From Hyphomonadaceae bacterium (lineage in GTDB: Bacteria; Pseudomonadota; Alphaproteobacteria; Caulobacterales; Aquidulcibacteraceae): a DNA stretch of 64,000 nucleotides. Positions 23,472 through 62,179 of the stretch are shown here, one piece after another. The translations under genes and the position numbers were made by a program. Within the stretch, counting starts at the first letter, position 1. Each line of letters starts with the position of its first letter. Under the pieces are notes generated by a model, which had not been told where the DNA came from, did not search any database, and was given only the letters and a program-made list of their open reading frames with translations. The DNA is taken from contig JAIELK010000006.1 of NCBI GenBank assembly GCA_019753175.1, positions 1 through 64,000 of the forward strand. The letters run 5' to 3'.

Positions 23472-24140
23472 TCAGGCACGGGCGCTTTGATTTTCGGCAA
23501 AGTTGGTCAGCGTCTCGATCACTTCGCGATCGTCCAACTGGTGGAAATCATCATAGAAATACCCCACCGCCCCGAAGCGCTCAGGCGCGGCGAGGCAAAC
23601 CACGTCGTCCACCTCGCGGCGCAACGCGCGCACGGTATCGGCTGCGGCGACAGGAACGGCGACCACGATCCGGCGCGGATGGCGGCGCTTCAGGGCCGTA
23701 ATCGCCGCCCGCACGCTGGCGCCTGTGGCGATGCCGTCATCGACGACAATGGCCGTGCGCCCTTCGGCCGAAATCGGCGCCTGACCCGGCAGATAGAGCG
23801 CGCGGCGCCGTTCGATCTCCTTCAGGTGCAGCTTTGCGGCCGCATCGATATCCACGCGGGTCATGCCAAAGGCGCGTACGATATCTTCGTTGAGCACGAT
23901 GTCGGGCGTTTCTCCATCGACCACCGAGGCCGCGGCCAGCTCCTCGTGGCCGGGCGCGCCGATCTTGCGCACGAGCAGCACATCGAGCGGCGCCCCCAGC
24001 AAGGTCGCTATGGGCGCGGCGACCGGCACCCCGCCTCTCGGCAGCGCGTACACCACCGGATGCTCGAAATTGCGTTTAGCAAGTGCCCGCGCCAGCAATT
24101 CGCCAGCACGGCGGCGGTTCGGGAATGGCGCTTCAATCAT
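23472..24140 (-). CDS. Phosphoribosyltransferase-domain protein
   Basis: A 222-residue protein with a type I PRTase fold. The PRPP loop is AIVVDDGIATGAS, preceded by the PP-loop region VLLVRKIGAPGHEELA. This stand-alone family is common in stress and dormancy gene sets, where it can be fused to alpha/beta hydrolase or erythromycin-esterase domains; separate copies of both occur at 28.5-30.5 kb here. The ATG at 24140 has no Shine-Dalgarno, and the upstream FixK-type box is centred only 41.5 bp away, which would make the mRNA leaderless. Confidence 0.88.
   Translation of the reverse strand: MIEAPFPNRRRAGELLARALAKRNFEHPVVYALPRGGVPVAAPIATLLGAPLDVLLVRKIGAPGHEELAAASVVDGETPDIVLNEDIVRAFGMTRVDIDAAAKLHLKEIERRRALYLPGQAPISAEGRTAIVVDDGIATGASVRAAITALKRRHPRRIVVAVPVAAADTVRALRREVDDVVCLAAPERFGAVGYFYDDFHQLDDREVIETLTNFAENQSARA
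23487..23500 (-). promoter_or_regulatory. FixK/FNR-type box upstream of hsp20
   Basis: TTGATTTTCGGCAA matches TTG(A/C)-N6-(T/G)CAA. It is centred 64.5 bp from the hsp20 ATG, consistent with a class II activator site and a leader of about 23 nt. It is embedded in the coding end of the phosphoribosyltransferase gene. Confidence 0.65.
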
Positions 24141-24174
24141 AGCGCCATATGATGCCAATTGCGCTAGCCGCGCT

Positions 24175-24188
24175 TTGATCTATTGCAA
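24175..24188 (-). promoter_or_regulatory. FixK/FNR-type box upstream of the phosphoribosyltransferase gene
   Basis: TTGATCTATTGCAA fits TTG(A/C)-N6-(T/G)CAA. Its centre is 41.5 bp from the ATG at 24140, so an activator site at -41.5 would put transcription start at the A of the start codon. Confidence 0.65.
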
Positions 24189-24299
24189 ACTCTGCTGCTT
24201 TAGACGCCGGGCCGCTTGAGCCATGGCGGGGGCCGGCGGCTAAGCGCCACCGCCGCATTCCGATGGCGAAGACGACTCTCCAGCCCACGCCGATACCGT

Positions 24300-25577
24300 T
24301 CAGCCATCGAGTGCGCGGAGCAGTGCGCTGTCGCGCCCGTAAAGATCCTCCGCATAGATCACCAGGCCGTCATCGTTAGCACCTGCGGTGAGATAAAGAA
24401 CATAGACCGGCAAGGGCGCAGCGAGCGAAATGACCTGAGTAGCGCCTGTCTCGATCGCCGCCTCAAGCGTTGGAGCGTCCCATATCGGGTCCCTCAAGGC
24501 GTTGACGGCGAGCGCGACCGGCTCGGCTACGCGAATGCACCCATGACTTAAGGCGCGATTGTCGCGCGCGAACAGGCCGCGGCTTGGCGTGTCGTGCAAG
24601 AAGACAGCATGGGGATTAGGCAAATCGAAGCGCAAGCGCCCGAGCGCGTTGCCCGGGCCCGCGCGCTGCCGCAGCGTGTACGGGAACGGCCGTGCGTTCC
24701 AATTCACATCCGCCGGGTCGACCACGCGCCCGGCGCTGTCGGTCACTTCGAAGTTCTCGTCGGCGGCAGCGCTGGGGTTGCGGCGGAAGCGTGGCAACAA
24801 TTCTCCCAGCAGAATGCTTGATGGCGGCGTCCAGGTGGGATTGAGCGTGATGGTCTCGATCGCGGCGGCGAAGGTTGGCGTCTGCGTGCCCCGCGCCCCA
24901 ACGATGATGGCGTGGCGCGTGCTCGCTTCGCCATTCCGCAGGCGCAGCTCAAAAAGTGGAACCAGCACGTCGATGCGGCGCCTCGGCATGTCTCGTGGCA
25001 GCCAGCGCCAGCGTTCCAAGCTCGCCTTCAGGCGCTCAATGCGCATCTCCTTTGAGAGGCCGTTGGCGTCAACAGCGCCGTCGGCTTCACCTTGAACGCG
25101 CGCCAGCTCGGCTGACAGCGCGGTGTACTCTGGTGCGCTGGGCAGCAAACCAATCAGCGTCTCGGAAACCTCGGCGCCTTCCGCTACGGCGCGCCGAAGC
25201 GTAGCGACGTCTGGCGGTGCCGGTCGCGCGATCCGCCACTCCGGATCCACCTGGGCCGGATCAACGCCGCCGACGGCAAAACTCAGCACCAACCGCTCGA
25301 ACATTGCATCCACGACCACATCGAGGCGCTGCGCCATCTCAGCCTGACCCAGCGACAACGGTTCAAGCTGGTCGATCAGTTCGAGAGCATCGGTCTCGGG
25401 CCTGAGGCCGTGCGCCGGGGCGATCCGCGCCGTGGCGCGCAGGTCCGCGAGCTGCTCTGCGCTCCATGCGCGCGCAGGAGGCGGCTCGATCGGGGGCAGC
25501 GGCGCTGGAACCGGCTCGCGTCCCGCGCAACCGGCGATCCAAGCCAACGCCAAGAGTGCGGCCAGCAAACGCAACAC
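24300..25577 (-). CDS. L,D-transpeptidase (YcbB/LdtD-like lipoprotein)
   Basis: Forms 3-3 cross-links in peptidoglycan or attaches proteins to it in the periplasm. The protein has a signal with lipobox IAGC, a helical N-terminal half, and a YkuD catalytic domain with YVLRQRAGPGNALG-like lead-in (here YTLRQRAGPGNALGRL), FLHDTPSRGLF and the active-site SHGCIRV (Cys nucleophile). The start is uncertain: the GTG at 25577 sits directly before the hydrophobic signal and leaves 68 nt to the divergent gene, whereas an upstream GTG at 25667 would overlap it. The divergent YcbK-like gene mirrors the ldtD-ycbK pairing known in enterobacteria. Confidence 0.88.
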   Translation of the reverse strand: MLRLLAALLALAWIAGCAGREPVPAPLPPIEPPPARAWSAEQLADLRATARIAPAHGLRPETDALELIDQLEPLSLGQAEMAQRLDVVVDAMFERLVLSFAVGGVDPAQVDPEWRIARPAPPDVATLRRAVAEGAEVSETLIGLLPSAPEYTALSAELARVQGEADGAVDANGLSKEMRIERLKASLERWRWLPRDMPRRRIDVLVPLFELRLRNGEASTRHAIIVGARGTQTPTFAAAIETITLNPTWTPPSSILLGELLPRFRRNPSAAADENFEVTDSAGRVVDPADVNWNARPFPYTLRQRAGPGNALGRLRFDLPNPHAVFLHDTPSRGLFARDNRALSHGCIRVAEPVALAVNALRDPIWDAPTLEAAIETGATQVISLAAPLPVYVLYLTAGANDDGLVIYAEDLYGRDSALLRALDG

Positions 25578-25645
25578 GCCGCCCGCTACCGGCGTGCGCA
25601 GTGCGCGCCTTGGCGTGTCAGCGCATTGGTCATAAGTATCGGCAT

Positions 25646-26176
25646 ATGCTGACACGTCGTGGTGCACTCCTCGCCGGGCTTGGCCTCACCGCGCCGGTCC
25701 TTTTCGCCGGAGCGGCGCGGGCAAGCGCACTAGAAACCAAAGCCCTCGCGTTTCACAACCTACACACCGGAGAAGCGCTCACAATTGAGTATTGGCAAAA
25801 CGGCGGCGTCCCAGCGGATGCGGCGGCCGCGATCAGCCATATCCTGCGCGATCACCGGACAGGCGAAGCCCACGCCATCGACGTGCGCCTGCTCGACCTG
25901 CTTTACAGTCTCTCGGGCGAACTCCCCACGACGCGCCCCTTCCAGGTCATATCCGGCTATCGCTCGCCGCAAACCAACGCCACGCTGGCCGACGCCAGTT
26001 CTGGCGTGGCGCGCCGCAGTCTGCACATGCAGGGCATGGCGATCGATATCGCCATTGAAGGGCTCGACACAATCGCACTGCGTGACGCCGCCTTGGCGCT
26101 GCGCGGCGGCGGCGTCGGGTATTACCCGGACCCTGGCTTTGTTCACGTGGATGTCGGTCGCGTACGGCAATGGTGA
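25646..26176 (+). CDS. YcbK-like (DUF882) peptidase M15-type protein, Tat signal
   Basis: A 176-residue exported protein. It begins MLTRRGALLAGLGL, a twin-arginine-like signal ending at AARA, followed by the DUF882 core with TRPFQVISGYRSPQTNA, SLHMQGMAIDIAI (zinc-binding His and Asp) and YYPDPGFVHVDVGRVRQW. Such proteins belong to the VanY/MepA-like metallopeptidase group and probably trim peptidoglycan. It is divergent from an L,D-transpeptidase gene, supporting a cell-wall role. Confidence 0.9.
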   Translation: MLTRRGALLAGLGLTAPVLFAGAARASALETKALAFHNLHTGEALTIEYWQNGGVPADAAAAISHILRDHRTGEAHAIDVRLLDLLYSLSGELPTTRPFQVISGYRSPQTNATLADASSGVARRSLHMQGMAIDIAIEGLDTIALRDAALALRGGGVGYYPDPGFVHVDVGRVRQW

Positions 26177-26363
26177 ATTAGCGACGCGCGCGCCCCATAC
26201 GATACGCCGCGATATGGCTCGCCCGCCGATATCTCTAGGCAGGACCAGCTGTTGGTGAGGATCGAGTATGGCGAGCACACGCGGGTTGTAGCGCGTTGAT
26301 CGATGAACTTTCTCGCGTTGTTGGAGCGCGCCCGAGGCTTTTCATACAGGCGCTCCAGCTCAT

Positions 26364-26843: not shown

Positions 26844-26888
26844 CGCCGCCTCCTGGGCGACTAGAGTAGGCAGCCTGCGCCCACCGCC

Positions 26889-26902
26889 CTGATCCTTGTC
26901 AA
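26889..26902. promoter_or_regulatory. Imperfect FixK/FNR-type box in divergent promoter
   Basis: CTGATCCTTGTCAA differs from TTG(A/C)-N6-(T/G)CAA at the first base only. It is centred 52.5 bp from the DUF3775 ATG and 42.5 bp from the protease ATG at 26938, so it could serve both. Confidence 0.45.
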
Positions 26903-26937
26903 ACTCTGCGCCTGGGAAATGCGCTTGAGTGAAGCCG

Positions 26938-27781: not shown

Positions 27782-27794
27782 GCGGCGCCCAGGT

Positions 27795-28502: not shown

Positions 28503-28508
28503 GTCGCG

Positions 28509-29822
28509 TCACAGCCCGAACGGATAGATGTCCGGCGCGCCCTCTGCCGGCTTGCCCGGCAATGGCTTCACCGGATTGGTCTCTTCGAACCACACCAGCG
28601 CGTCGAACTGGCGCGACAGATGCGCATCGAAATAATGGCTCCAGCGCTCGGTCTCGGGCCGATAGATGACGCCAATTGCGCGCTCAAGGCGCCGCGCCGC
28701 GAGGCCGGACGCGAGTGATGCATCGCCGCGCCAATGGGTCAGAGACTGCTGCATCCCCGCGTCCCGGAAGATCCGCTCCCAAGAATCAGCGCGCGCGGGC
28801 CGCACGCTCATGACGCGCGGCGCGTCGCCCCAATCGTCGGCCGCCATCACGGCGCCGCGGTCGGTGGCAAAGCCGATTGCGGCGGCTTGCCTGCCGAACC
28901 GCACCTTGCACAATTGCCCGATATTGAGTTCGCCGCGCTCGCCCATGCCCGTGGCGCCCGCATTGCCAATATGGGAATTGTGCGCCCACACGATGGCTTT
29001 CGAGTTCGGCCCGCGAAACGCCAACAGCCGCTCCAGCGTATCGAACATGTGGCTGTCCCGCTGGTTCCAGCTCTCTTCCGAACCGCGATACATAGCGCGG
29101 TAATAGCCTTCGGCGGCGCAAACCACGCGCGCGTTCTGTTCGGCGTCGAAGAACGAATGACCGTCCTTTTCTTCGTACCGCAAGCGCTCTTCCAAGAGCG
29201 CCACCAATTGCTCGACGACCGCGTCCTCGCAGGTTTCACCAAACCTCTCGGCGCGCGCGCCGTAGCGTTGCGGCGACTCCAGATAAGGCGAGAGGCACCC
29301 GTAGCGCCGCCGCGCCATGCGCGCGGCCTGAGGATCGACGCGGTCCAGATAGGCGAGCACTTCGTCGATCGAGCGATGCATGCTGTAAAGATCGAGCCCG
29401 CGCAGTTCGGCGCGATCCTCGAACGGGCGCAGCTCATTCCATGCGCGCATTCCATACAGAAACTGCGCGAACTCGACGTTGCGCCACATCCAGCGCGGAA
29501 AGTTCACAAAGGCGCTGCGCTCGCCCCATTTGCCATGCTGGCGCACGAAGCGGTCGAGTTCCGCCGCGTCCGGCCAGTCGCCCTCGATGGCGACGATGCG
29601 GAACCCGTGCCGCTCGATCAAACGTCGCGTGATGATGGCGCGGGCGCGATAGAATTCCGATGTGCCATGGGTGCATTCGCCCAAGAGTACAATCCGCGCG
29701 TCCGCGAAGCGATCGAAGCTCGCGGCAAAGCGCTCCTCGTCATCCAGGCTCGGTAAGGGCTCGCTCGCCGCGCGTGCGCGCGCGATGAGGTCTTCCACGG
29801 AAGCAAGCGCAAGTTGGCTCAT
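28509..29822 (-). CDS. Erythromycin esterase family protein
   Basis: A 437-residue protein of the EreA-like superfamily. Key blocks are VLLGECTHGTSEFYRARAIITRRLIERHGFRIVAIEGDWPDA (catalytic-type His and Glu) and the later VWAHNSHIGNA. Chromosomal members in stress regulons are not resistance enzymes, and drug hydrolysis is not implied here. Mycobacterial DosR-regulon relatives fuse this domain to a phosphoribosyltransferase. Its ATG overlaps the stop of the alpha/beta hydrolase gene (ATGA). Confidence 0.9.
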   Translation of the reverse strand: MSQLALASVEDLIARARAASEPLPSLDDEERFAASFDRFADARIVLLGECTHGTSEFYRARAIITRRLIERHGFRIVAIEGDWPDAAELDRFVRQHGKWGERSAFVNFPRWMWRNVEFAQFLYGMRAWNELRPFEDRAELRGLDLYSMHRSIDEVLAYLDRVDPQAARMARRRYGCLSPYLESPQRYGARAERFGETCEDAVVEQLVALLEERLRYEEKDGHSFFDAEQNARVVCAAEGYYRAMYRGSEESWNQRDSHMFDTLERLLAFRGPNSKAIVWAHNSHIGNAGATGMGERGELNIGQLCKVRFGRQAAAIGFATDRGAVMAADDWGDAPRVMSVRPARADSWERIFRDAGMQQSLTHWRGDASLASGLAARRLERAIGVIYRPETERWSHYFDAHLSRQFDALVWFEETNPVKPLPGKPAEGAPDIYPFGL

Positions 29823-30463: not shown

Positions 30464-30517
30464 GGGCGTTCCTCCGCGTGCGGATCGGTATCAGAGACCA
30501 ACTGCCCGGCGCGTACG

Positions 30518-30531
30518 TTGCGCAATGTCAA
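30518..30531 (-). promoter_or_regulatory. FixK/FNR-type box upstream of the hydrolase operon
   Basis: TTGCGCAATGTCAA fits TTG(A/C)-N6-(T/G)CAA and is centred 61.5 bp from the ATG at 30463, predicting a leader of about 20 nt. The box overlaps the stop codon of the PEP synthase gene. Confidence 0.65.
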
Positions 30532-32939
30532 GCCGCGGCGCCGGCCGCGCTTGCTTCGGCTTTTGCGACCGCGCGTTTTACCGCTAGGAAACTGTCGGGG
30601 GTCACCGAGATCGAGTCGATCCCGCAACCGACGAGGAACGCCGCGAACTCCGGATGATCGCTGGGCGCCTGCCCGCACAAACCTGTGTGAGCGCCCACTG
30701 CGCGCGCCTCCGTGATCAGGCGCTCAATCATCCAGCGCACGGCGTCGTCCTGCTCGTCAAAAAGACCGGCCAAATCCTCGCAGTCGCGATCCACGCCGAG
30801 CGTGAGCTGCGTCAAGTCATTCGAGCCGATCGAGAAGCCGTCGAAGCGCTCGGCGAAAGCCCTCGCCAGGACGACGTTCGAAGGAATTTCGCACATCACG
30901 TATACCTGAAGCCCATCCCTGCCGCGCTCCAGTCCGTTCTCCGCCATCACCGCGAGCACGCGGTCGGCTTCGGCGATGGAGCGGCAGAATGGGATCATCA
31001 CCACAACATTGGCGAAGCCCAGGTCATTGCGCAGCCGCCTTATGGCCCGGCATTCCAAAGCGAAGCCTTCGCGATAGCGCAGCGAATAGTAACGCGAGGC
31101 GCCGCGAAACCCGATCATTGGGTTCTCTTCCTGCGGCTCGAATGGACCGCCGCCGACAAGCTTGGCGTATTCATTGGTTTTGAAGTCGCTCATGCGGATG
31201 ATGACGAGCTTGGGATGAAAAACCGCCGCGATCCGCGACAGCCCGCGCGCTACCTTGTCGACGAAATACTCCGCCCCGTTCGGATAACCTTCCGAGAGCG
31301 CATCGATCGTCGCCCGTTCCTCGGCTGATACCTTGTCAGCGTGAATGAGCGCCATCGGGTGCGCCTTGACCAAATGGCTAATCACGAACTCCATGCGTGC
31401 GAGACCCACCCCGTCCGCCGGCAGCCGCCACCATCGAAACGCCGCGCCAGGATCTGCGAGATTGAGCATGATCTTGGTTCGGGTCGCGGGAACCGTCGAA
31501 AGATCGGCGTCCTCAACGGCGATCTCCGCGCGTCCTTCATAGACGAAGCCTTGATCTCCCTCGGCGCACGACACCGTAATGTCTTGACCATCGCGCAGCA
31601 CCGACGTGGCGTCGCCGGCGCCGACGATCGCTGGAACGCCGACTTCGCGCGCAACGATCGCCGCATGCGATGTGCGCCCTCCGTGATCAGTGACGATCGC
31701 CGCCGCCCGCTTCATCATTGGCACCCAATCGGGATCGGTGGTTTGCGCCACCAGCACCGCGCCATCGACGAAACGGCCGATTTCGTCAGGGGTCTTGATC
31801 ACGCACACTGGGCCGATTGCTGCAGCGCCGCCGATCGCCAGGCCTTTCGCCAAACGCACGCCCTTCTTTTTGATCGCGTATGTCCTTATGCGTCCCGTCC
31901 CCGCACGCGATTGCACGGTCTCGGGACGGGCCTGAAGCACATAGAGCCGCCCGTCGACGCCATCCTTGGCCCATTCAATGTCCATGGGCCGGCCATAATG
32001 GCGCTCGATCGCGACCGCCCAGCGGCCTAGCCTCAGAATTTCCTCGTCACTCAACACGAAGCGGGCGCGCTCTTCAGCGGAGGTCGTCACATCTTGCGTG
32101 GCTTGGCCGTCGGCGCCGAAGATCAGCTTGTTTTGCTTGGCGCCGAGTTTTTTTTCGACGATGGGCGCACACCCTGGCTTTTCGAGTAGTGGCTTGAACA
32201 CCTGATACTCGTCGGGATCGACGCTGCCTTGTACGATGCTCTCGCCTAGCCCCCAGGCCGCATTGATCAGCGCAACATGCGGAAAACCTGTCTCTGTGTC
32301 CAAGGAGAACAACACGCCAGCGCCGCCGACATCGGCGCGCACCATCCTCTGCACGCCGACAGACAGCGCAATCTTCATGTGGTCAAAGTTCACCGCCTCG
32401 CGATAAGCGATGGCGCGATCCGTGAAGGCCGAGGCAAAGCAGCGTTTGCACGCGTCTAGCAGGGCCTCGGCGCCTGTGATGTTGAGATACGTTTCGTGCT
32501 GGCCGGCAAAGCTCGCTTCCGGCAAATCCTCCGCCGTCGCACTAGAGCGAACCGCTACAGGCGCCGCGTTGCCCCCCTCGCCACACAACGTCTCATACGC
32601 CGACTTGAGTGCTGACTGAACGGACGCCGGCAGCGCCGCGCTCAGAAACGCCGCGCGTATCCGCGCGCCGACCGCCTCAAGCGGCGCCGCGCCGCTCTCG
32701 TAGTCCTTCAGCGCGTCCTCAATGACAGGCGCCAAGCCGTTATCCGCGATGAAAAGACGGAAAGCGCCCGCTGTCGACGCAAAGCCGCCGGGCACGCGCA
32801 GCCCAGCGGCAGTCAGGTTCTGGATCATCTCACCGAGAGAGGCGTTCTTGCCGCCAACTATGGCGACATCTCCCCGCCCAACCCGCTCCAGCGGGATCGT
32901 AAAGGACTGATATTGAGCTGTTTCCACGGCGCGAAGCAT
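30528..32939 (-). CDS. ppsA: Phosphoenolpyruvate synthase
   Basis: Converts pyruvate, ATP and water to PEP, AMP and phosphate. The 803-residue protein has the N-terminal ATP-grasp domain (GGKNASLGEMIQNL, AVRSSATAEDLPEASFAGQHETYLN), the swivelling phospho-His domain (GGRTSHAAIVAREVGVPAIVG) and the C-terminal PEP-binding barrel (IPFCRSIAEADRV, GSNDLTQLTLGVDRD, CGQAPSDHPEFA). Two starts are possible: ATG 32939 or GTG 32930. A FixK-type box centred 40.5 bp from the GTG would make that start leaderless, as proposed for the phosphoribosyltransferase gene. Confidence 0.95.
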   Translation of the reverse strand: MLRAVETAQYQSFTIPLERVGRGDVAIVGGKNASLGEMIQNLTAAGLRVPGGFASTAGAFRLFIADNGLAPVIEDALKDYESGAAPLEAVGARIRAAFLSAALPASVQSALKSAYETLCGEGGNAAPVAVRSSATAEDLPEASFAGQHETYLNITGAEALLDACKRCFASAFTDRAIAYREAVNFDHMKIALSVGVQRMVRADVGGAGVLFSLDTETGFPHVALINAAWGLGESIVQGSVDPDEYQVFKPLLEKPGCAPIVEKKLGAKQNKLIFGADGQATQDVTTSAEERARFVLSDEEILRLGRWAVAIERHYGRPMDIEWAKDGVDGRLYVLQARPETVQSRAGTGRIRTYAIKKKGVRLAKGLAIGGAAAIGPVCVIKTPDEIGRFVDGAVLVAQTTDPDWVPMMKRAAAIVTDHGGRTSHAAIVAREVGVPAIVGAGDATSVLRDGQDITVSCAEGDQGFVYEGRAEIAVEDADLSTVPATRTKIMLNLADPGAAFRWWRLPADGVGLARMEFVISHLVKAHPMALIHADKVSAEERATIDALSEGYPNGAEYFVDKVARGLSRIAAVFHPKLVIIRMSDFKTNEYAKLVGGGPFEPQEENPMIGFRGASRYYSLRYREGFALECRAIRRLRNDLGFANVVVMIPFCRSIAEADRVLAVMAENGLERGRDGLQVYVMCEIPSNVVLARAFAERFDGFSIGSNDLTQLTLGVDRDCEDLAGLFDEQDDAVRWMIERLITEARAVGAHTGLCGQAPSDHPEFAAFLVGCGIDSISVTPDSFLAVKRAVAKAEASAAGAAA

Positions 32940-32963: not shown

Positions 32964-32977
32964 TTGATCTGCGTCAA
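32964..32977. promoter_or_regulatory. FixK/FNR-type box between ppsA and the ndvB region
   Basis: TTGATCTGCGTCAA is a perfect TTGAT-N4-(A/G)TCAA palindrome. Its centre is 31.5 or 40.5 bp from the two candidate ppsA starts. In the other direction it is 60.5 bp from a small GTG frame at 33031 and 127.5 bp from the ATG at 33098, so divergent control is possible. Confidence 0.7.
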
Positions 32978-42594: not shown

Positions 42595-42608
42595 TTGATC
42601 CATCGCAA
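42595..42608 (+). promoter_or_regulatory. FixK/FNR-type box upstream of the acs-PDH operon
   Basis: TTGATCCATCGCAA fits TTG(A/C)-N6-(T/G)CAA. It is centred 65.5 bp from the ATG at 42667, predicting a leader of about 24 nt. Confidence 0.65.
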
Positions 42609-47788: not shown

Positions 47789-47802
47789 TTGACGTGGATC
47801 AA
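47789..47802 (+). promoter_or_regulatory. FixK/FNR-type box upstream of the hibernation-factor gene
   Basis: TTGACGTGGATCAA matches the consensus and lies only 5 nt after the ACP stop. It is centred 55.5 bp from the ATG at 47851, and CACAAT at 47824-47829 is a good -10 candidate for an activator at -41.5. Confidence 0.7.
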
Positions 47803-47850: not shown

Positions 47851-48417
47851 ATGCAAACTGCGCTACACATCACCTTCGAACGTATGGAGCCTTCGGACTT
47901 CGTGCGTCAGCGTATTGAACGCGAAGTGGCCGCGCTTGAGAAACGCTATGGCCGCATCACCGCTTGCCAGGTGTTTGTCGAGGGCCCGGGCCATCGTCAT
48001 CGCCAGGGGGGGCTCTACGCGTTTCGGGTCGCCTTGGAGTTACCAGGCGGCGTGCACCTCTCCGCCAGCCGCAACCCGCCCTCAGCGCAGCAGCATGAAG
48101 ACGCCTACGTGGCGCTGCGGGACGTGTTTCGCGCGCTGCGCCGCCAACTGCAAGATCATGTGCGCGCGCGCGAGGATGAACCCAAGCAGCCCTTCACCCA
48201 ACCCCATGGGGTGATCGAGCGCATCGTGCCCGAAAAGGCTTGCGGCTTCATCCGCACTGACGATGGACGCGAAATCTACTTCCACAAGAATGCGGTGCTT
48301 GGCGAAGAATTCGAAAGCTTGCGTGTCGGCGCTGAAGTCCGCTTCAGCGAAGAAGAAGGCCGTGACGGCCCGCAGGCCAGCACCGTTCATGTCTCGGGCA
48401 CACGCCATCGCCCCTGA
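47851..48417 (+). CDS. Ribosome hibernation factor (HPF/RaiA-like) fused to a cold-shock domain
   Basis: A 188-residue two-domain protein. Residues 1-105 have the HPF/YfiA layout (MQTALHITFERMEPSDFVRQRIEREVAALEKRYGRITACQVFVEGP...LSASRNPPSAQQHEDAYVALRDVFRALRRQL). Residues about 127-188 are a cold-shock domain (HGVIERIVPEKACGFIRTDDGREIYFHKNAV) with RNP1-like CGFIRT and RNP2-like IYFHKN. HPF normally binds the 30S decoding region and silences ribosomes in stationary phase; here the usual C-terminal dimerisation domain is replaced by an RNA-binding fold. The ATG at 47851 starts the HPF fold. Confidence 0.88.
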   Translation: MQTALHITFERMEPSDFVRQRIEREVAALEKRYGRITACQVFVEGPGHRHRQGGLYAFRVALELPGGVHLSASRNPPSAQQHEDAYVALRDVFRALRRQLQDHVRAREDEPKQPFTQPHGVIERIVPEKACGFIRTDDGREIYFHKNAVLGEEFESLRVGAEVRFSEEEGRDGPQASTVHVSGTRHRP

Positions 48418-49176: not shown

Positions 49177-49190
49177 TTGCGATTCATCAA
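49177..49190 (-). promoter_or_regulatory. FixK/FNR-type box upstream of dodecin
   Basis: TTGCGATTCATCAA matches TTG(A/C)-N6-(T/G)CAA, centred 56.5 bp from the dodecin ATG. It overlaps the stop codon of the alcohol dehydrogenase gene. Confidence 0.65.
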
Positions 49191-50250: not shown

Positions 50251-50264
50251 TTGACGAAACTCAA
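50251..50264. promoter_or_regulatory. FixK/FNR-type box in the adh divergent promoter
   Basis: TTGACGAAACTCAA matches the consensus. It is centred 60.5 bp from the adh ATG and 65.5 bp from the ATG at 50323 on the other strand, so one site is well placed for both promoters. Confidence 0.65.
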
Positions 50265-52697: not shown

Positions 52698-52930
52698 CTG
52701 CGGCTCCTCCTTATTCATCAGCACCGAACCGGCGGCGCACCTTGATTGTACCCAAACCAGCGCGCCACCCGCCATCGAACTGGCACATGTGGCCGCCTTG
52801 CGGAATATCAACGCGGCGACCTTCAAGCGCTGGCTGATTGCCTGCGACGAAAGGGGGATTCTTGGGAGCGCCCATGCTCACCGGCGAAGCGAAATGTCGC
52901 CCATCATTACGAGAATAGTGGAGGTTCGTC
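52698..52930. other. 233-nt divergent intergenic region with an imperfect FixK-like box
   Basis: TTGATTGTACCCAA at 52742-52755 is one base off the consensus and is centred 51.5 bp from the RNase ATG. A 53-codon minus-strand frame starting MGAPKNPPFVAGNQ ends 13 nt before that ATG, but I cannot recognise it and do not call it a gene. Confidence 0.4.
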
Positions 52931-54134: not shown

Positions 54135-54148
54135 TTGACGGTTCGCAA
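54135..54148 (+). promoter_or_regulatory. FixK/FNR-type box upstream of the BON-protein gene
   Basis: TTGACGGTTCGCAA matches TTG(A/C)-N6-(T/G)CAA. It is centred 62.5 bp from the ATG at 54204. TAGAAA at 54171-54176 is a matching -10 candidate for a class II site, giving a leader of about 21 nt that contains the AGGAGGAGG ribosome site. Confidence 0.7.
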
Positions 54149-54860: not shown

Positions 54861-54887
54861 GGCGCGCTGGGTCTGACCCGGCGCGCC
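54861..54887. terminator. 11-bp hairpin between convergent genes
   Basis: GGCGCGCTGGG (54861-54871) pairs with CCCGGCGCGCC (54877-54887) around a 5-nt loop, with one T-G pair. It lies between the stops of the BON gene and the convergent flavodoxin gene, so it could end both transcripts. No U-tract follows. Confidence 0.6.
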
Positions 54888-54889
54888 GC

Positions 54890-55375
54890 TCACCTAGTCC
54901 TGCGGGCGCTCACCGAGCGCGCAAACGCCGCCGCCTGTTCACGCCAAGGACCGGCGCGCAAAGTTCTCTCGTCAAAGGCAAAAGTTGCGACCGGAGTGCG
55001 CTGGCAGAGAGCTGCCGCGCCGGCCAGCGCCGCCTCACCGCCGGCGCCGCCCAAGGTGCAAAAGAGCGCGATCTGCTTAAAGATCGCGCGCTCCCGCAAA
55101 ATGTAGCTCCGCATCGGCGAGGCCATTTTCCCGGCCCAAACCGGAAATCCGAGCAACACCAGATCGTAGTTCGCCGCGCTCTTGATCGCTGGCGCAATCG
55201 GCGCCGCGCGTTCACCCGCAGCTTCCATTCCTGAACGAACATAGGCGAAGAGGCCCCTTCGTGGCTTCCGATCTTTGATCGCCTCAAGATCCGCTCCAAG
55301 CGCCTCGGCAATCGCCTTTGCTGCTCGCTCGGTGTTGCCGCTCCAGGAATAATAGGCGACGAGGACCTTGCTCAT
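54890..55375 (-). CDS. Flavodoxin
   Basis: A 161-residue FMN-binding redox protein of the flavodoxin/WrbA-like class. The phosphate-binding loop is YYSWSGNTERAAKAIAEALGADLEAI, and the second FMN loop region is LLGFPVWAGKMASPMRSYI. Its ATG overlaps the stop of the broken gene upstream (ATGA), so it was part of that unit. Confidence 0.88.
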   Translation of the reverse strand: MSKVLVAYYSWSGNTERAAKAIAEALGADLEAIKDRKPRRGLFAYVRSGMEAAGERAAPIAPAIKSAANYDLVLLGFPVWAGKMASPMRSYILRERAIFKQIALFCTLGGAGGEAALAGAAALCQRTPVATFAFDERTLRAGPWREQAAAFARSVSARRTR

Positions 55376-55888
55376 GGCGACTCTCCCATTGGGGCGAGTT
55401 GCGCGACCGCCACGACATAATTCTCCCCATATGCCTTCGCGCATTTAGGACAGGTCGTGTAGAAGAAATACGTTCTTTCCGCCCGCTTCCCATTTTCCGG
55501 CGCATCTTGATACGGGCCTTCGAACACGCGCGTGCGATAGTCGCCGCTTAACCGCGCCATCTCAAGGCCCTCGACAGGCGCCGTCACCGCGAAGAAATGC
55601 TCCGCCGACCATGCGGAGAGTTCGCGGCTGAGCACTGCTGAGCACTAAGGTCTGGTCGGGCGCCTGCGCGTGAGCGGCATCGATCGCCTCTTGAGTACGG
55701 GCAAACACCGCGCCCATGTCGAGAGGTATATGACCCGCACTGTGCGTCTTCGCGCGCGCAAAGAGCTTGTCTTCGAAATGACGCGCCTGGCCGTCCCAGG
55801 CTTGAGGCTTGAAGTGCGGACAACAACCCGTGGGACTGTCGCTGGCATCGTAAGCAGGCGTGCGGTTCGTTTGCATGATCCGTTCCAT
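55372..55888 (-). pseudogene. Hydrolase-like conserved protein interrupted by a 10-bp tandem duplication
   Basis: The 5' frame encodes MQTNRTPAYDASDSPTGCCPHFKPQAWDGQ... up to DQTLVLS, and the 3' frame resumes at SRELSAWSAEHFFAVTAPVEGLEMARLSGDYRTRVFEGPYQDAP...YFFYTTCPKCAKAYGENYVVAVAQL. At the junction GCTGAGCACT (plus strand) occurs twice in tandem, 55627-55636 and 55637-55646. Deleting one copy leaves 507 nt, exactly 169 codons, as one continuous protein of 168 residues. This is therefore one gene with a recent slippage insertion. The intact family is alphaproteobacterial and often loosely labelled hydrolase; it has Cys pairs but no proven function. Confidence 0.85.
55627..55646. repeat. Perfect 10-bp tandem duplication causing a frameshift
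   Basis: GCTGAGCACT is present twice without spacer (55627-55636 and 55637-55646). Two copies break the reading frame of the 55372-55888 gene; one copy restores it. Confidence 0.92.
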
Positions 55889-55892
55889 GATC

Positions 55893-56735: not shown

Positions 56736-56745
56736 GATCGCCTCC

Positions 56746-57555: not shown

Positions 57556-58260
57556 TTAGAGGTCCTGACCTCCCTCCGCCGCCAATTCGAGTTGATCGCG
57601 CCGCTTGATGTGGATCGTCGTTCCGCGTTCGATGCCGATCACGCGCTGCGCCTTGAGCGCCGAGAGAGCGCGGCTCACGCTCTCCAACGTCAAGCCAAGG
57701 AAGTCGCCCATGTCAGCGCGGGTCATGGCGAGATGGAGGCTCTGACCATCGCTGCCCTCGGCCTCGGCTCTCTCCACCATGTTGAGCAGAAACCGCGCCA
57801 CCCGAGCGGCGGCGCCGTCCTGACCGAGCGACGCCAAATGAACCTGCATCGCTTCCATCTCAGCGCCCAGCGCCTCGAACATGAGCCGCCCAAGCCGCGG
57901 CGATTGATCGATTGCGCGCGCGAGAGCATTAAGCGGGATACACTTGACCACGGTGGCTTCCGTAGCCTGCGCGCTCATCGCTTCGATTGGGCCCAAGCTG
58001 AGCGCCGCCAGGTCGCCGCAAGAGACAAACCGGAAAATCTGCCGGCGACCGTCCCTCAATATCCTGTATAGCGCGAGCGTGCCGCTAACGACTTGATAAA
58101 TGGAGGTTTTCCTGTCGCCTTCGACGAAGAGGTGCTCCTTCGCCGCGACATGGCGCAAAGCCGCAGGCGGCATCAGGTCAACGAGAGCAGGAACAGCGCC
58201 GCGGGCCTGAACCCCTCTCGGCGCGCTAAGCGCACCCGTAACTGTGATCACCGCTTGCAT
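57556..58260 (-). CDS. Crp/FNR-family regulator, FixK-like
   Basis: A 234-residue activator. The cNMP-type sensor fold (about 24-140) includes VEGDRKTSIYQVVSGTLALYRILRDGRRQIFRFVSCGDLAALS, then the dimer helix and the winged helix (about 175-220). The recognition helix MGDFLGLTLESVSRALSAL keeps E193, S196 and R197, the E-xx-SR pattern that in FNR and FixK contacts TTGA half-sites. The N-terminal cysteine cluster of oxygen-sensing FNR is missing, so it is likely FixK/DNR-like and controlled by expression or another signal. The start at 58260 has GGGAG upstream. It is divergent from an OmpR-type response regulator gene. Confidence 0.9.
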   Translation of the reverse strand: MQAVITVTGALSAPRGVQARGAVPALVDLMPPAALRHVAAKEHLFVEGDRKTSIYQVVSGTLALYRILRDGRRQIFRFVSCGDLAALSLGPIEAMSAQATEATVVKCIPLNALARAIDQSPRLGRLMFEALGAEMEAMQVHLASLGQDGAAARVARFLLNMVERAEAEGSDGQSLHLAMTRADMGDFLGLTLESVSRALSALKAQRVIGIERGTTIHIKRRDQLELAAEGGQDL

Positions 58261-58406
58261 GGAGTGCTCCCTCGCTTGCCCAGCGCACCGGAAAAGAACA
58301 CACCAATCGCGCGTCACGCGTTTATGCAGTTTACGAAACAACGTGTATTAATGTGTGACAGCGAGGGAATGGGCTCCCTGCTCCGGCCAGGACGAGGTTA
58401 GCCCTT

Positions 58407-59150
58407 ATGACGCAACCATCGGCCAAAACGCGTCTCTTGGTCGTCGACGACGACGAACAAGTGCGAACGCTGTTGCGTCATCGGTTCGAGCAAGAGGGCT
58501 TCATCGTCGGCGAAGCGGCGGGCGGCGCCGACCTGAAAGCAGCGCTCTTAAGCGAAGCCTATGATCTCATCACGCTCGACCTCAACCTCGACGGCGAGGA
58601 TGGCTTGGCGCTCGCGCGCGAAATCCGCGCGGAGCGCAACATTCCGATCATCATGATCTCGGGTAAGAATGAGGAGGTCGATCGGGTCGTGGGATTGGAA
58701 GTCGGCGCCGACGATTACATCACCAAGCCTTTCAGTCCGCGCGAGGTCGTGGCGCGCGTCCGCGCGGTGCTGCGCCGCTATGCCGGGCCTGCGTCCGCGC
58801 CGGCGGCCGCACCGGTGAACACAACGCCGACTACCAAGCTTGTCTTTGAAGGCGGCCTGCTCGATCTCGGCAAGCGCGAACTACGTTCGCCGGCGGGTGC
58901 GCCGATTGGCGTCACCACGGCGGAGTTCAACTTGATGGAACTCTTCTTGCGTCACCCCCAGCGTGTGCTGTCACGCGACGAGATCATGACCGCACTGAAA
59001 GGTATCGATTGGACGCCCTTCGACCGGTCCGTGGATACAGCGATCGGACGGCTTCGCAAGAAGATCGAACCTGACCCCGCCGCGCCAACCTACATCAAGA
59101 CCGTGCGCGGCGTGGGCTATGTGTTCTCGGGCGAAGTGCGGCCGGGTTAG
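58407..59150 (+). CDS. OmpR-family response regulator
   Basis: A 247-residue regulator with a receiver domain (about 8-120: acidic pocket VVDDDE, phospho-acceptor D58 in LITLDLNL, the switch Lys in [13 protein letters not shown]) and a C-terminal winged helix (about 145-245: [57 protein letters not shown]). It is divergent from the Crp/FNR gene and convergent with the hybrid kinase, overlapping the latter's 3' end by 4 nt. Pairing with that kinase is likely but not proven. Confidence 0.93.
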
Positions 59151-61516
59151 GGTTCTCGCGCCAGCGCCGCCTTCACCGCCGCGGCGAGATCGGATTGGCT
59201 GTAGGGCTTCTGCAGGACTTTGGCCGAGAACTGACGCTCGCCATTGCGCACCGCGTCGAGATCGAACCCCGACGTCAGCAGAACCGGAAGCTCGGGCGCG
59301 CGCGCCTCGAGCGCGCCCAACAAATCAAAGCCCGACATGCCCCCTGACATGACGATGTCGCTGAACACTACATCGGCATGCTCGCCACGCTGAAGCAGCG
59401 CCAGCGCGCTCGGCCCATCGGGGGCTTCGAGTACGCGATAGCCGAGACGCTCCAGCCGCGCGCAGGTGATGGCGCGCACCTGCGCATCGTCCTCCACGAC
59501 CAGCACTGTTTCCCCATTTCCGCTCAATGCGTTCCTGGCGGTCTGTTGAACGCCCATCGCGGCGCCGTCCGCGCCATGATGGCGTGGGAAATAGACGTTG
59601 ACCGTCGTCCCGCGCCCGACCTCGCTGTAGATCGTAACGTGGCCGCCCGACTGCTTGGTGAAGCCATGCACGGTCGCGAGCCCCAGGCCCGAGCCCTTGC
59701 CTTGCGCTTTGGTCGTAAAAAACGGTTCGAACACACGCGACAGAACCGAAGGCGGAATGCCTTCGCCGCTGTCGCTAACGGAGATCGACACGTACTGGCC
59801 GGGCGACAAATCCGCTTCACCGCGCGTGGCCGCTTCATCGATCTCGGCGTTCTTGGTCGAAATATGCAGCCGGCCGCCGCGTGGCATGGCGTCCCGCGCG
59901 TTGATCGCCAGGTTCAGCAAGGCGGCGTCCAACTCGCTCGGGTCGAGCGCGACTTTCCAGATATCGGCATGCAATGTCGTCGTGAGGGTGATGGTCTCGC
60001 CGAGCACGCGCCGGAGCATGTCGCTCATGGCCGCGACCTGCTGATTGAGGTCGAGCACGCGTGGCGCGAGCTTGCGCCGCCGCGCGACGGTCAAGAGACG
60101 CCGGTTCAGGTGCGTCATCCGCTCGACGGCGGATTGCGCCTCGCGCAGATACTTCAAAGCTGGCGCCCCAGACCCCAGCGAATCCTCGATCATCTCGAGA
60201 TTGCCGCCAATCACCGTCAGCATGTTGTTGGCGTCGTGCGCGACGCCGCCGGTGAGCTTGCCGATGGCCTCCAGACGCTGAGCCTCCGCCAGCGCCGCCT
60301 GGGCCTCCTCGCGCCGTTGCATCTCGGCGCGCAGTTCCGCCGTGCGCTCGGCGACCTTCGCTTCCAGCGCGCGCTCGGCGTCAACATAAAAGGTAACATC
60401 GCGACCCTCGGGCAAGAGCCATCTAACGTGACCGTCCGCGCCTAAGATCGGCGTCAGTGAAAAATCGATGTCCTTGCGTTCACCATGTCTGTTGGTGTGT
60501 ACAGCGTCGAAACGGCTGAATTCCCCCCGCCGGCCGCGTTTGATCGCGTCCTTGAGCCGCGCGCGCGATGGCGCGTCTCCCTCCCACCATGGCGTCTCCC
60601 AAAATGGCAGCCCATGAACTTGATCAAGCGCCATGCCAATGAAGGAGAGCGCGGCACGGTTTGCGTCGACGAGATTGCCGTTGACATCGAGCAGGCCGAT
60701 AAACTCGACGCTCTGATCATAAATCGAGCGAAGACGCTGCTGATCCAAGGCGCGCTCTTCGTCTAGCCTCTTGCGCTCCGTGACGTCCCGGATCACGCCG
60801 ATCCGGCGCAAAGCTTCGCCTTGTTCGCCGACCTCGACTTGTCCTTGCCCCACGAGCCAACGGTCGGGCCCCTCCGGGTACGACAGCCGAAACTCCAGCG
60901 CGAACCTGCCGTCCGCGTGGCGCGCCGCGTCAAGCGCGGTCGCAATCATGATCCGATCGTCTGGGTGGATGCGATCCAGCAATTGCTGGAATGGAAACTC
61001 GCCGGGCATGGAAAGCAAGTGTTGAGCATGCTCGTCGAGTTGCGTGACGCCGGTGCGCTCATCGGTCTGAAACACCCCCATGCGCCCAGCCAACAGAGCA
61101 ATCCGCAAGCGCTGCTCGCGTTCCCGCAGACGCTGATCAAGGCTCACCTGTTCGCTGATGTCGCGGAGCACTGCGGTGAGCACTAGGCCGTTTGGCCCAA
61201 CGAACTTTGAGATCGACACATCGGCGGGAAACTCGCCGCCGTCCTTGCGTCTGCCGGACACCGGGCTGCGCTCGCCCATCCGGCGAGCCTGGATCGTCGA
61301 CCGTTGGAAGGTGCGAACATGCTCGTTGTGCGACAGCGCGGCGCTTGTCGGAAGAAGCTGGGCAAGGCTTTGGCCAAGCATCTCCTTGGCGCTATAGCCA
61401 AAGATGCGCTCGGCGCCGACGCTAAACAGCGTGATCGTCTGTTGCTCATCGAGACAGATGATCGCATCGACCGGAGATTTCAGCAGATCATTCAGCAGGC
61501 CCGTCGGCGCATCCAT
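59147..61516 (-). CDS. Hybrid PAS sensor histidine kinase with C-terminal receiver
   Basis: A 789-residue cytosolic kinase without membrane spans: PAS1 (about 8-120), PAS2 (about 135-250), PAS3 (about 262-380), a short coiled coil, HisKA with H427 in GGVAHDANNMLT, the HATPase domain (ALLNLAINARDAMPRGG, GLGLATVHGF) and a receiver (about 668-786, acceptor D720 in VVFSDIVMSGG). PAS1 resembles FixL-type PAS domains: H63 (SHNEHVRTF) is placed like the FixL heme ligand and VSGRRKDGGEFP follows. Heme binding is a hypothesis because many PAS domains share this pattern. Confidence 0.9.
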   Translation of the reverse strand: MDAPTGLLNDLLKSPVDAIICLDEQQTITLFSVGAERIFGYSAKEMLGQSLAQLLPTSAALSHNEHVRTFQRSTIQARRMGERSPVSGRRKDGGEFPADVSISKFVGPNGLVLTAVLRDISEQVSLDQRLREREQRLRIALLAGRMGVFQTDERTGVTQLDEHAQHLLSMPGEFPFQQLLDRIHPDDRIMIATALDAARHADGRFALEFRLSYPEGPDRWLVGQGQVEVGEQGEALRRIGVIRDVTERKRLDEERALDQQRLRSIYDQSVEFIGLLDVNGNLVDANRAALSFIGMALDQVHGLPFWETPWWEGDAPSRARLKDAIKRGRRGEFSRFDAVHTNRHGERKDIDFSLTPILGADGHVRWLLPEGRDVTFYVDAERALEAKVAERTAELRAEMQRREEAQAALAEAQRLEAIGKLTGGVAHDANNMLTVIGGNLEMIEDSLGSGAPALKYLREAQSAVERMTHLNRRLLTVARRRKLAPRVLDLNQQVAAMSDMLRRVLGETITLTTTLHADIWKVALDPSELDAALLNLAINARDAMPRGGRLHISTKNAEIDEAATRGEADLSPGQYVSISVSDSGEGIPPSVLSRVFEPFFTTKAQGKGSGLGLATVHGFTKQSGGHVTIYSEVGRGTTVNVYFPRHHGADGAAMGVQQTARNALSGNGETVLVVEDDAQVRAITCARLERLGYRVLEAPDGPSALALLQRGEHADVVFSDIVMSGGMSGFDLLGALEARAPELPVLLTSGFDLDAVRNGERQFSAKVLQKPYSQSDLAAAVKAALAREP

Positions 61517-61635
61517 GCCCTCATCCCCTGCCTTGCCCGCTCTGGGTCAATCACCAAGAGCCATGGCGAGCAAGTTCGATGAATATGCTAGACCTATTGT
61601 CCCAGCACACTTTGACAATTGATCAGGCCTCCGGC

Positions 61636-62109
61636 TCAGCGAGCATGCATACTACCGCACTCAAGCGCGTCGGCCGCGGTGCGCTGCTCCGGCGTCAACA
61701 CCGCATAGAGCGCTTCCAGGCTGGCGCGCAGCGCGCGCATCGAGTCGAGGTGGCTGGCCATCATTTCCTCATGATGGCGCATGCGTTCGGGCGCGGAACC
61801 GGTGGTGTGACCCATGCCGGGGCCGCCGCCATGATGCATCGGCATCGACCCAGCGTGCTCACGGTATGCCGCGGCGTAGGCGTTCCATGCCGCTTCCTGG
61901 TCAGGCGTGATGCTCAAGGCGGCGCGCACATGGGCCAGATGCGCCTCGGCGTCGTGGCGCGCATGCGGACACCCCGCCATCGCCCCCATTCCGGCCATCA
62001 TCTGCATGGAGCTTTCGCGCGCGCCTGCATGGGGCCCAGGCCCCATCGCTCCGTGAACGCAACCCGCGAGCAGCAGCGATAAAGCAGCAACGACGATAGA
62101 GGTGCGCAT
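61636..62109 (-). CDS. Spy/CpxP-like (LTXXQ) periplasmic lipoprotein
   Basis: A 157-residue exported protein with lipobox LAGC, rich in His and Met. Two LTXXQ-like helices are seen (ALSITPDQEAAWNAYAAAY and LYAVLTPEQRTAADAL), the hallmark of the Spy/CpxP group of periplasmic chaperone or metal-responsive proteins. The many Met/His residues may bind metal. A FixK/FNR-type box is centred 63.5 bp upstream of the ATG at 62109. Confidence 0.8.
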   Translation of the reverse strand: MRTSIVVAALSLLLAGCVHGAMGPGPHAGARESSMQMMAGMGAMAGCPHARHDAEAHLAHVRAALSITPDQEAAWNAYAAAYREHAGSMPMHHGGGPGMGHTTGSAPERMRHHEEMMASHLDSMRALRASLEALYAVLTPEQRTAADALECGSMHAR

Positions 62110-62165
62110 CGAGAAATGTCCTAACGAAGACAAGCGACATCTTCGGCGTCTTCGCGCCCAGGACT

Positions 62166-62179
62166 TTGATCGCCGTCAA
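62166..62179 (-). promoter_or_regulatory. FixK/FNR-type box upstream of the LTXXQ-protein gene
   Basis: TTGATCGCCGTCAA, extended to the palindrome TTTGATCGCCGTCAAA, is the strongest-looking copy in the window. It is centred 63.5 bp from the ATG at 62109, predicting a leader of about 22 nt. Confidence 0.75.

What the first reader, a model, noticed from the sequence alone, without database searches (positions are those of the whole stretch)
23487..62179. A FixK/FNR-type palindrome recurs upstream of about a dozen stress genes
TTG(A/C)-N6-(T/G)CAA, the FixK/FNR-family consensus, is seen at 23487, 24175, 30518, 32964, 42595, 47789, 49177, 50251, 54135 and 62166, with one-mismatch copies at 26889 and 52742. 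Most are centred 51-66 bp from the start codon, as expected for a class II activator site at -41.5 plus a short leader. I noticed none upstream of genes in the first 22 kb. By a rough hand estimate at two-thirds GC only one or so full match would be expected by chance in 64 kb. This implies one activator, probably the Crp/FNR protein at 57556-58260, controls much of the 23-62 kb block.
Basis: partly seen in the sequence, partly recalled or inferred. Interest (0 to 1): 0.85.

Follow-up and report, generated by a model that had tools for sequence, protein, structure and literature searches.

The report
Inserted low-oxygen stress-gene island, FixK-wired
A block of about 47,000 bases of stress-survival genes, absent at this place in related bacteria, carries the same low-oxygen switch sequence in front of many of its genes, so it probably works as one package turned on when oxygen runs short; packages of this kind are already known in other bacteria.

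Summary
The excess lies between genes: 14 intergenic sites at 22.9-70.3 kb against 1.45 expected from 377 kb of the same genome. Boxes recur at 20 of 67 orthologue starts, against 0-2 of 67 for 11 permuted palindromes. A -10-like element follows at class II spacing in 24 of 49 promoters (1000 shuffles: at most 15). The block is an insertion of about 47 kb: in 17 of 17 usable relatives mgtE and lplA lie 0.2-12 kb apart. A cousin cluster on a conjugative Sinorhizobium plasmid has 23 boxes in 40.5 kb. Which protein reads the boxes is open: the genome also has a resident FixL-FixJ-FixK-cco locus, while one relative keeps the island's kinase, response regulator and FixK-like gene and shows no other FixK/FNR match. 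Verdict: a new member of a known kind, the FixK-controlled, lxa-like hypoxia stress island.

The parts
22956..23429 (-). Hsp20 small heat-shock protein; first gene of the island
   Evidence: Pfam HSP20 2.8e-23; box 64.5 bp upstream
23487..23500 (.). FixK-type box for Hsp20; overlaps the 3' end of the phosphoribosyltransferase gene
23472..24140 (-). phosphoribosyltransferase
   Evidence: Pfam Pribosyltran 4.4e-15 (scanned from 24158)
24175..24188 (.). box, 41.5 bp from the called start of the phosphoribosyltransferase; a class II site here would give a leaderless transcript (inference)
26889..26902 (.). one-mismatch box, 52.5 bp upstream of the DUF3775 gene
30518..30531 (.). box, 61.5 bp upstream of the alpha/beta hydrolase gene, which adjoins the erythromycin-esterase-like gene on the same strand
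30528..32939 (-). phosphoenolpyruvate synthase
   Evidence: NCBIfam PEP synthase above cutoff
32964..32977 (.). box upstream of PEP synthase (31.5 bp from the called ATG, 43.5 from an in-frame GTG); one of 14 strict-consensus sites of the genome
33368..41887 (+). 2839-aa protein with GH94 and glucoamylase domains, cyclic-glucan-synthase-like (label recalled); no box near its own start
   Evidence: Pfam
42595..42608 (.). box, 65.5 bp (my start, 42667) upstream of the AMP-binding enzyme / E1 / E2 / acyl-carrier gene run
47789..47802 (.). box, 55.5 bp upstream of the HPF gene; strict consensus
47851..48417 (+). HPF/RaiA (S30AE) plus cold-shock-domain fusion protein
   Evidence: Pfam; matches in 12 of 200 order genomes and 44 of 385 class genomes, own genome counted
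49177..49190 (.). box, 56.5 bp upstream of a 66-aa ORF followed by the DUF2267 gene
50251..50264 (.). box between divergent genes: zinc-type alcohol dehydrogenase (-) at 60.5 bp (my start, 50197) and ORF 50323 (+) at 65.5 bp
52742..52755 (.). one-mismatch box, 51.5 bp (my start, 52697) upstream of the beta-CASP nuclease gene
54135..54148 (.). box, 62.5 bp upstream of the three-BON-domain protein
57556..58260 (-). FixK-like Crp/FNR regulator (P0001): LGLTLESVSR recognition helix, no N-terminal cysteine cluster, no box at its own promoter
58407..59150 (+). OmpR-type response regulator, divergent from P0001
   Evidence: Pfam; 58% homologue in the same arrangement in G186
59147..61516 (-). hybrid PAS histidine kinase; first PAS 32% identical to the resident FixL PAS
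62166..62179 (.). box, 63.5 bp (my start, 62109) upstream of the LTXXQ-motif gene; strict consensus
62582..64000 (-). P-type ATPase; the called gene runs past the window end to 65092 of the contig

Best explanation
Positions 22.9 to about 70 kb of the contig are an inserted island of stress and maintenance genes (Hsp20, PEP synthase, HPF ribosome hibernation factor, BON, USP, alcohol dehydrogenase, P-type ATPase, a kinase with a FixL-like PAS, and others). Many of its promoters carry a FixK/FNR box centred near -41.5. A FixK-type protein, made or activated when oxygen falls, binds the box, contacts RNA polymerase as a class II activator and switches the units on together. Shown by computation: the excess of sites, their place between genes, the spacing to a -10-like element (island and relatives pooled), recurrence upstream of orthologues, and the insertion. 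Inferred: binding, activation, low oxygen as the signal, and which protein binds (the island's own FixK-like P0001, the resident FixK beside FixLJ, or both).
For: 19 sites against 4.06 expected, 0 of 100 shuffles. Island 14 intergenic sites against 1.45 expected from 376.6 kb of the same genome (Poisson 5.5e-10; conditional binomial 2.4e-7); gene-start test 11 of 39 against 9 of 366, p 1.5e-7. Strict TTGAY-N4-RTCAA: 14 in the genome against 1 for the reversed pattern; 4 of the 14 lie in the island (1.5% of the genome) and one upstream of ccoN. Orthologue starts in 14 loci: 20 of 67 with a box 20-110 bp upstream, against 0-2 of 67 for 11 permuted palindromes. Further class-wide loci: HPF 6 of 29 against 0 of 29, BON 3 of 11 against 0-1 of 11. 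NANNNT 21/22 nt after the box in 24 of 49 promoters, opposite flank 9 of 49, largest value at any offset in 1000 shuffles 15. Boxes outnumber every permuted palindrome in 12 of 14 loci (not G194, G063). Conjugative plasmid pSF45436d: 23 boxes in 40.5 kb, 13 of 29 annotated genes with a box 20-110 bp upstream. In G082 and G159 FixL- and FixK-type genes lie in the cluster itself.
Against: Most orthologues elsewhere lack the strict box at their own start (47 of 67; 23 of 29 HPF in the class set), some perhaps because they lie inside operons. In this island alone the -10-like element is at the right spacing in only 6 of 17 promoters (opposite flank 2 of 17). Five of 17 exact sites in the block are inside genes, and in-gene sites in the island are somewhat above expectation (7, of which 23487 is a promoter site, against 2.2). 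Several members (the 2839-aa protein, USP, kinase, response regulator, FixK-like gene) have no exact box near their own start. Two of the 14 related loci are not enriched. Gene starts come from a home-made caller or my eye. The loose motif's genome-wide excess over the reversed pattern is modest (234 against 151). No expression or binding data exist for this genome here.
Confidence: 0.82

Rival explanations
1. The island is read by the resident FixL-FixJ-FixK cascade alone, and the island's own FixK-like protein is a side regulator or does something else.
For: On C4:28-39 kb lie FixL (549.9 bits, below its equivalog cutoff of 850), FixJ (272.4, above cutoff), FixK (243.1, below its cutoff of 300), and ccoN, ccoO, ccoP and ccoG (above cutoff), with strict box TTGATCGCGATCAA upstream of ccoN. 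The recognition helices share E, S and R. FixK is general in the genus: 16 rows (15 other genomes and this one) form one clade that leaves P0001 out. G063 has a boxed HPF promoter and one FixK-type match, about 114 kb off.
Against: G186 carries the same kinase/regulator/FixK-like set with no other FixK match at E<=1e-12 and no FixL at E<=1e-70, yet has boxes. This island's promoter boxes more often carry a TTGC half-site than boxes in other genomes (8 of 12 against 6 of 32, p 0.004, chosen after seeing the data; sites, test).
Confidence: 0.35
2. The island's own FixK-like protein alone reads the boxes, fed by the adjacent kinase and response regulator.
For: Kinase, response regulator and FixK-like gene keep the same arrangement in G186 (52% over kinase residues 351-774, 58% and 45.5%). 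P0001's best match is the G186 protein (45.5%), against 37% or less in the other genomes searched. The regulator lies in the middle of the inserted block.
Against: The resident FixK has a like helix, and published FixK/FNR sites are virtually identical (PMC2908626, passages), so keeping the resident protein off would need a special reason. The triad rests on one other genome, whose N-terminal PAS was not matched.
Confidence: 0.2
3. A DNR/NnrR-like regulator (C15:61868-62596, next to narK) reads the boxes in response to nitrogen oxides.
For: That gene has a GMTPENLSR helix, strict boxes lie around it, and DNR sites are reported virtually identical to FixK sites (PMC2908626, passages).
Against: Island contents suggest micro-oxic stress rather than denitrification (inference); two relatives' clusters carry FixL- and FixK-type genes.
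Confidence: 0.07
4. The excess is an artefact of composition or codon usage.
For: In-gene sites in the island are also somewhat above expectation (7 against 2.2, p 0.007).
Against: Dinucleotide shuffles, permuted palindromes, the intergenic bias, spacing to the -10-like element and recurrence in other genomes all speak against it.
Confidence: 0.02

Closest known systems
lxa locus (low-oxygen-activated locus) of Burkholderia cenocepacia, BCAM0275-BCAM0323
   Same: A 50-gene block with six universal stress proteins, an alpha-crystallin-type heat-shock protein, a BON protein and others, strongly raised at low oxygen and required for anoxic persistence in J2315/K56-2; absent from strain H111 (PMC6127331, PMC9104464, PMC3759415, passages).
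   Different: Overlap is by gene names only; I compared no sequences. The passages that I saw discuss BCAM0049/FixK and FixLJ as likely regulators; I saw no operator map of the locus in them.
FixK2 regulon of Bradyrhizobium diazoefficiens
   Same: Micro-oxia-induced Hsp20, universal stress proteins, PEP synthase, alcohol dehydrogenases, a DUF302 protein; part of them listed as direct FixK2 targets (PMC6515984, passages).
   Different: Genes of several groups in that genome, with PEP synthase (blr4655) and the DUF302 gene not marked as direct targets; here one inserted block with its own FixK-like gene.
Core FNR/FixK/DNR regulons of alphaproteobacteria
   Same: Hsp20, a CBS protein and a zinc-binding alcohol dehydrogenase are predicted FixK members, UspA FNR and DNR members; FNR, FixK and DNR sites virtually identical; FixK group defined as lacking one or more of the four Fe-S cysteines (PMC2908626, passages).
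   Different: Those are regulons conserved across species; the island is an accessory block.
FnrN-dependent small heat-shock gene rlv_1399 of Rhizobium leguminosarum
   Same: Box TTGA-N6-TCAA before an sHSP gene; micro-aerobic induction lost in an fnrN1 fnrN2 mutant (PMC11784457, passages).
   Different: Box centred 87.5 bp from the start codon, single gene, other regulator.
DosR dormancy regulon of mycobacteria
   Same: Comparable contents (alpha-crystallin, universal stress proteins), a parallel already drawn in print for lxa (PMC6127331, passages).
   Different: Different regulator and operator (recalled); analogy only, not tested.

Membership tests
FixK/FNR-type operator, class II | TTGA-N6-TCAA-like palindrome more frequent than chance | tested here: met
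FixK/FNR-type operator, class II | centre at about -41.5 from the transcription start | tested here: met
   Indirectly, by spacing to a -10-like element over 49 pooled promoters; this island alone 6 of 17 against 2 of 17, inconclusive; transcription starts not measured
FixK/FNR-type operator, class II | protein binding and activation | not testable with these tools
   needs gel shift, ChIP or mutants
FixK group of the Crp/FNR family (P0001) | E-x-x-S-R in the recognition helix (rule recalled) | tested here: met
   LGLTLESVSR
FixK group of the Crp/FNR family (P0001) | lacks the Fe-S cysteine set of FNR | tested here: met
   no cysteine in the first 45 residues; two cysteines in the whole protein
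FixK group of the Crp/FNR family (P0001) | reaches the NCBIfam FixK equivalog cutoff | tested here: not met
   124.6 bits against 300; the resident FixK has 243.1 and also misses it. I therefore write FixK-like
lxa-like hypoxia stress island | large accessory block of stress genes | tested here: met
   Pfam/NCBIfam annotation and insertion between mgtE and lplA compared with 17 of 17 usable relatives
lxa-like hypoxia stress island | induced by low oxygen, needed for anoxic survival | not testable with these tools
   no expression or mutant data
lxa locus proper | orthology to BCAM0275-BCAM0323 | not tested
   no named Burkholderia sequence was fetched or compared

The most novel reading that the evidence does not exclude
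The island is a portable low-oxygen package that brings its own sensing line: a hybrid kinase with a FixL-like PAS, an OmpR-type response regulator in place of FixJ, and a FixK-like activator that takes a looser half-site (TTGC as well as TTGA). It would run beside the resident FixLJ-FixK line, and cousins of the package travel on conjugative plasmids.
Probability: 0.35. Interest if true: 0.6.

Novelty: new member of a known kind. Interest (0 to 1): 0.42.

Why it matters
It shows what looks like a whole low-oxygen survival regulon arriving as one piece with its operators in place. Because FixK, FNR and DNR read nearly the same box, such a piece could be read by whatever regulator the new host has. 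That would help explain the patchy spread of hypoxia stress clusters in proteobacteria, and it can be tested with two deletions and RNA-seq.

Tried and rejected
Chance or composition: rejected. Box 55691 as a promoter site: rejected, since Pfam PF20603 matches two overlapping ORFs in different frames (profile positions 70-159 and 1-74), so the site lies inside that gene; I scanned the two pieces apart and did not mend it. A box at the FixK-like gene's own promoter: none, and no matrix hit of 7 or more between it and the response regulator. Integration marks: no tRNA in the window; no integrase among the genes that I scanned, which are those from 16.2 kb on and not every ORF; repeats were sought within each flank separately, not between flanks, and gave nothing telling. 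A conserved operator between response regulator and FixK-like gene of G000 and G186: the alignment showed nothing clear. The first gene caller (hexamers) called too few genes and was replaced. A tree of FixK-type proteins puts P0001 outside the genus FixK clade, but on a long branch, so its exact place is unsure. Structure prediction was not run: it would not separate the candidate regulators. No comparison with Burkholderia lxa sequence was made.

Rows dropped before counts: one search left out kinase and response-regulator queries, matches starting beyond query residue 60 and matches covering under half of the query, and kept the best match per gene and locus (67 left, from 14 loci chosen by HPF, P0001 or plasmid hits, not by boxes). 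One search used 29 HPF loci, one for each of 29 of the 43 other genomes with a match (locus cap 30), and 12 BON loci of which one was too short. One search pooled 17 promoters of this island (15 in the window, 2 just past its end; two with one-mismatch boxes; box 50251 used in both directions) with 32 from relatives after removing duplicates. One search used 29 of the 30 annotated genes (one is cut off at the edge). The gene-start test counts the doubtful ORF at 55372.

Papers: passages only (find) of PMC6127331, PMC9104464, PMC3759415, PMC6515984, PMC11784457, PMC2908626 and PMC3966863; all others in search listings only. Sass et al. 2013 on lxa was not read; it is cited through the papers above. 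The searches listed no paper that I recognised as describing this island; I claim no more than that.
Full report
Observation. TTGM-N6-KCAA matches 19 times in the window; dinucleotide shuffles give 4.06 (sd 1.94, largest 9; 0 of 100 reach 19). In the whole genome (3.13 Mb, 40 contigs) the loose pattern occurs 234 times against 151 for the reversed pattern, so as a genome-wide signal it is modest. The strict pattern TTGAY-N4-RTCAA occurs 14 times against 1; four of the 14 are in the island and one is upstream of ccoN.

Placement. With my own gene caller I compared 22.9-70.3 kb with 376.6 kb of the same genome (contig C1 outside the block up to 264 kb, and C2 1-160 kb). The island has 14 intergenic boxes where 1.45 are expected (Poisson 5.5e-10; conditional binomial 2.4e-7). 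In-gene boxes are 7 against 2.2. Eleven of 39 island genes have a box centred 20-110 bp upstream, against 9 of 366 background genes (p 1.5e-7). The caller counts 55691 as intergenic, though it lies inside a gene that reads in two frames, and counts 23487, the Hsp20 box, as in-gene because it overlaps the end of the next gene; swapping the two leaves 14. Of the eleven genes, the ORF at 55372 should be struck. With starts re-read by eye, 9 of the 12 promoter boxes in the window lie 55.5-65.5 bp from a start codon.

Geometry. I aligned 49 promoters with a box: 17 of this island (15 in the window, 2 just past its end; two with one-mismatch boxes, one box used in both directions) and 32 at orthologues elsewhere, duplicates removed. 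A -10-like NANNNT starts 21 or 22 nt after the box in 24 of 49; the opposite flank gives 9 of 49; in 1000 shuffles the best offset never exceeds 15 (mean at this offset 4.0). That spacing puts the box centre at about -40.5 to -41.5. The 17 of this island alone give 6 against 2, which would not suffice.

The block is an insertion. Among 31 genomes searched for both flanking genes, I fetched the 17 in which mgtE and the biotin-carboxylase-family gene (76799-78799 here) lie near each other on one contig: 11 of the genus, 6 of the order. In all 17, mgtE and lplA are 0.2-12 kb apart, and none of the island proteins that I searched with matches between them at E<=1e-8, apart from one partial 35% P-type-ATPase match in G014. 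Here they are 48.7 kb apart. Relatives with the genes on different contigs were not usable. In ten of the 11 genus genomes the 151-aa ORF at 70400 lies beside lplA, which sets the right border near 70 kb. G+C of the block (4-kb bins 0.62-0.65) is close to that of its surroundings (0.63-0.68).

Recurrence. The HPF plus cold-shock gene matches in 12 of 200 genomes of the order and 44 of 385 of the class, own genome counted. Around it lie rearranged clusters with other island families, in some loci many and in some few. Boxes lie 20-110 bp upstream of 20 of 67 orthologue starts; 11 permuted palindromes give 0-2 of 67. A separate class-wide set gives HPF 6 of 29 (controls 0 of 29) and BON 3 of 11 (controls 0-1). 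So the wiring recurs but is not universal: 47 of 67 starts lack a strict box. By locus, boxes outnumber every permuted palindrome in 12 of 14, not in G194 (1 against max 2) and G063 (1 against max 5). On the conjugative Sinorhizobium fredii plasmid pSF45436d a cousin cluster (glucoamylase-family gene of 8.3 kb, P-type ATPase, Crp/Fnr, HPF, DUF3775, BON) has 23 boxes in 40.5 kb (permuted mean 1.3, max 3), and 13 of 29 annotated genes have a box upstream.

Regulators. P0001 (57556-58260) has the LGLTLESVSR helix and no N-terminal cysteine cluster; NCBIfam FixK 124.6 bits, below the cutoff of 300. The resident FixK on C4 has 243.1; beside it lie FixL (549.9, below its cutoff of 850), FixJ (272.4, above 255), and ccoN, ccoO, ccoP and ccoG, all above cutoff. 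All 12 HPF genomes have at least one match to FixK at E<=1e-12, and each has at least one with an E-x-x-S-R helix. In G124 the only such protein found is an FNR with the cysteine cluster, on another contig, and no FixL passes E<=1e-70. In G082 and G159 FixL- and FixK-type genes lie in the cluster itself. In G186 homologues of the kinase (52%, residues 351-774 matched, so its first PAS was not matched), the response regulator (58%) and the FixK-like gene (45.5%) keep the window's arrangement, on a contig with USP, BON, Hsp20 and beta-CASP homologues; no other FixK match (E<=1e-12) or FixL (E<=1e-70) was found there. Its HPF gene, with a box, is on a different contig. A box also lies 66.5 bp before the first ATG of its Hsp20 ORF. 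In 398 genomes of the order only G000 and G186 score about 445 bits with a model of these two; the next scores 153 (the model was built from the two, which favours them).

The kinase. The first PAS of 59147-61516 is 32% identical to the resident FixL PAS, and a histidine aligns with the FixL histidine that I recall as the haem ligand. That histidine is, as I recall, common in PAS domains, so haem binding is a guess.

Reading. The best account is a horizontally acquired low-oxygen stress island with class II FixK-type promoters. I give 0.82 to that account, without naming the protein. Between readers: resident FixK alone 0.35, island protein alone 0.2, a DNR-like third 0.07, otherwise both of the first two.

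Known or new. FixK/FNR control of Hsp20, USP, alcohol dehydrogenase and other stress genes is in print (PMC2908626, PMC6515984, PMC11784457, passages), and a strain-specific stress island raised at low oxygen is in print for Burkholderia (lxa; PMC6127331, PMC9104464, PMC3759415, passages). This is a new member of that kind. The possible new element is the island's own kinase, OmpR-type regulator and FixK-like line with a looser box. It rests on one other genome and on a half-site count chosen after seeing the data: 8 of 12 promoter boxes of this island (10 in the window, 2 just past it) carry a TTGC half, against 6 of 32 in other genomes (p 0.004; sites listed, counted by eye, tested).

Noticed in passing
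55372-55888 (-): Pfam PF20603 (bacterial hydrolase) matches two overlapping ORFs in different frames, so the gene is split (frameshift or sequencing error); box 55691 lies inside it.
   Followed up: partly
33368-41887 (+): A 2839-aa protein with GH94 and glucoamylase domains sits in the island; a glucoamylase-family gene of similar size is in the S. fredii plasmid cluster (L075:846-9119).
   Followed up: no
L075 (NZ_CP029234.1, conjugative plasmid pSF45436d): 23 FixK-type boxes in 40.5 kb; 13 of 29 annotated genes have one upstream; a FixL-PAS-like stretch at 19124-19387 lies where no gene is listed.
   Followed up: partly
island promoter boxes against relatives: 8 of 12 promoter boxes of this island have a TTGC/GCAA half-site, against 6 of 32 in other genomes (p 0.004, post hoc); unexplained.
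   Followed up: partly
24175-24188 and 32964-32977: These boxes lie 41.5 bp and 31.5 (or 43.5) bp from possible start codons; class II sites here would give leaderless or nearly leaderless transcripts.
   Followed up: no
G000 C15:60293, 62687, 62738: Strict boxes around a third FixK/FNR-like gene (GMTPENLSR helix) beside a narK-type nitrate transporter, as for a DNR-like regulator.
   Followed up: no
28509-29822 and 23472-24140: Erythromycin-esterase-like and phosphoribosyltransferase genes near Hsp20 recall (from memory) a fusion and neighbours in the mycobacterial DosR regulon.
   Followed up: no
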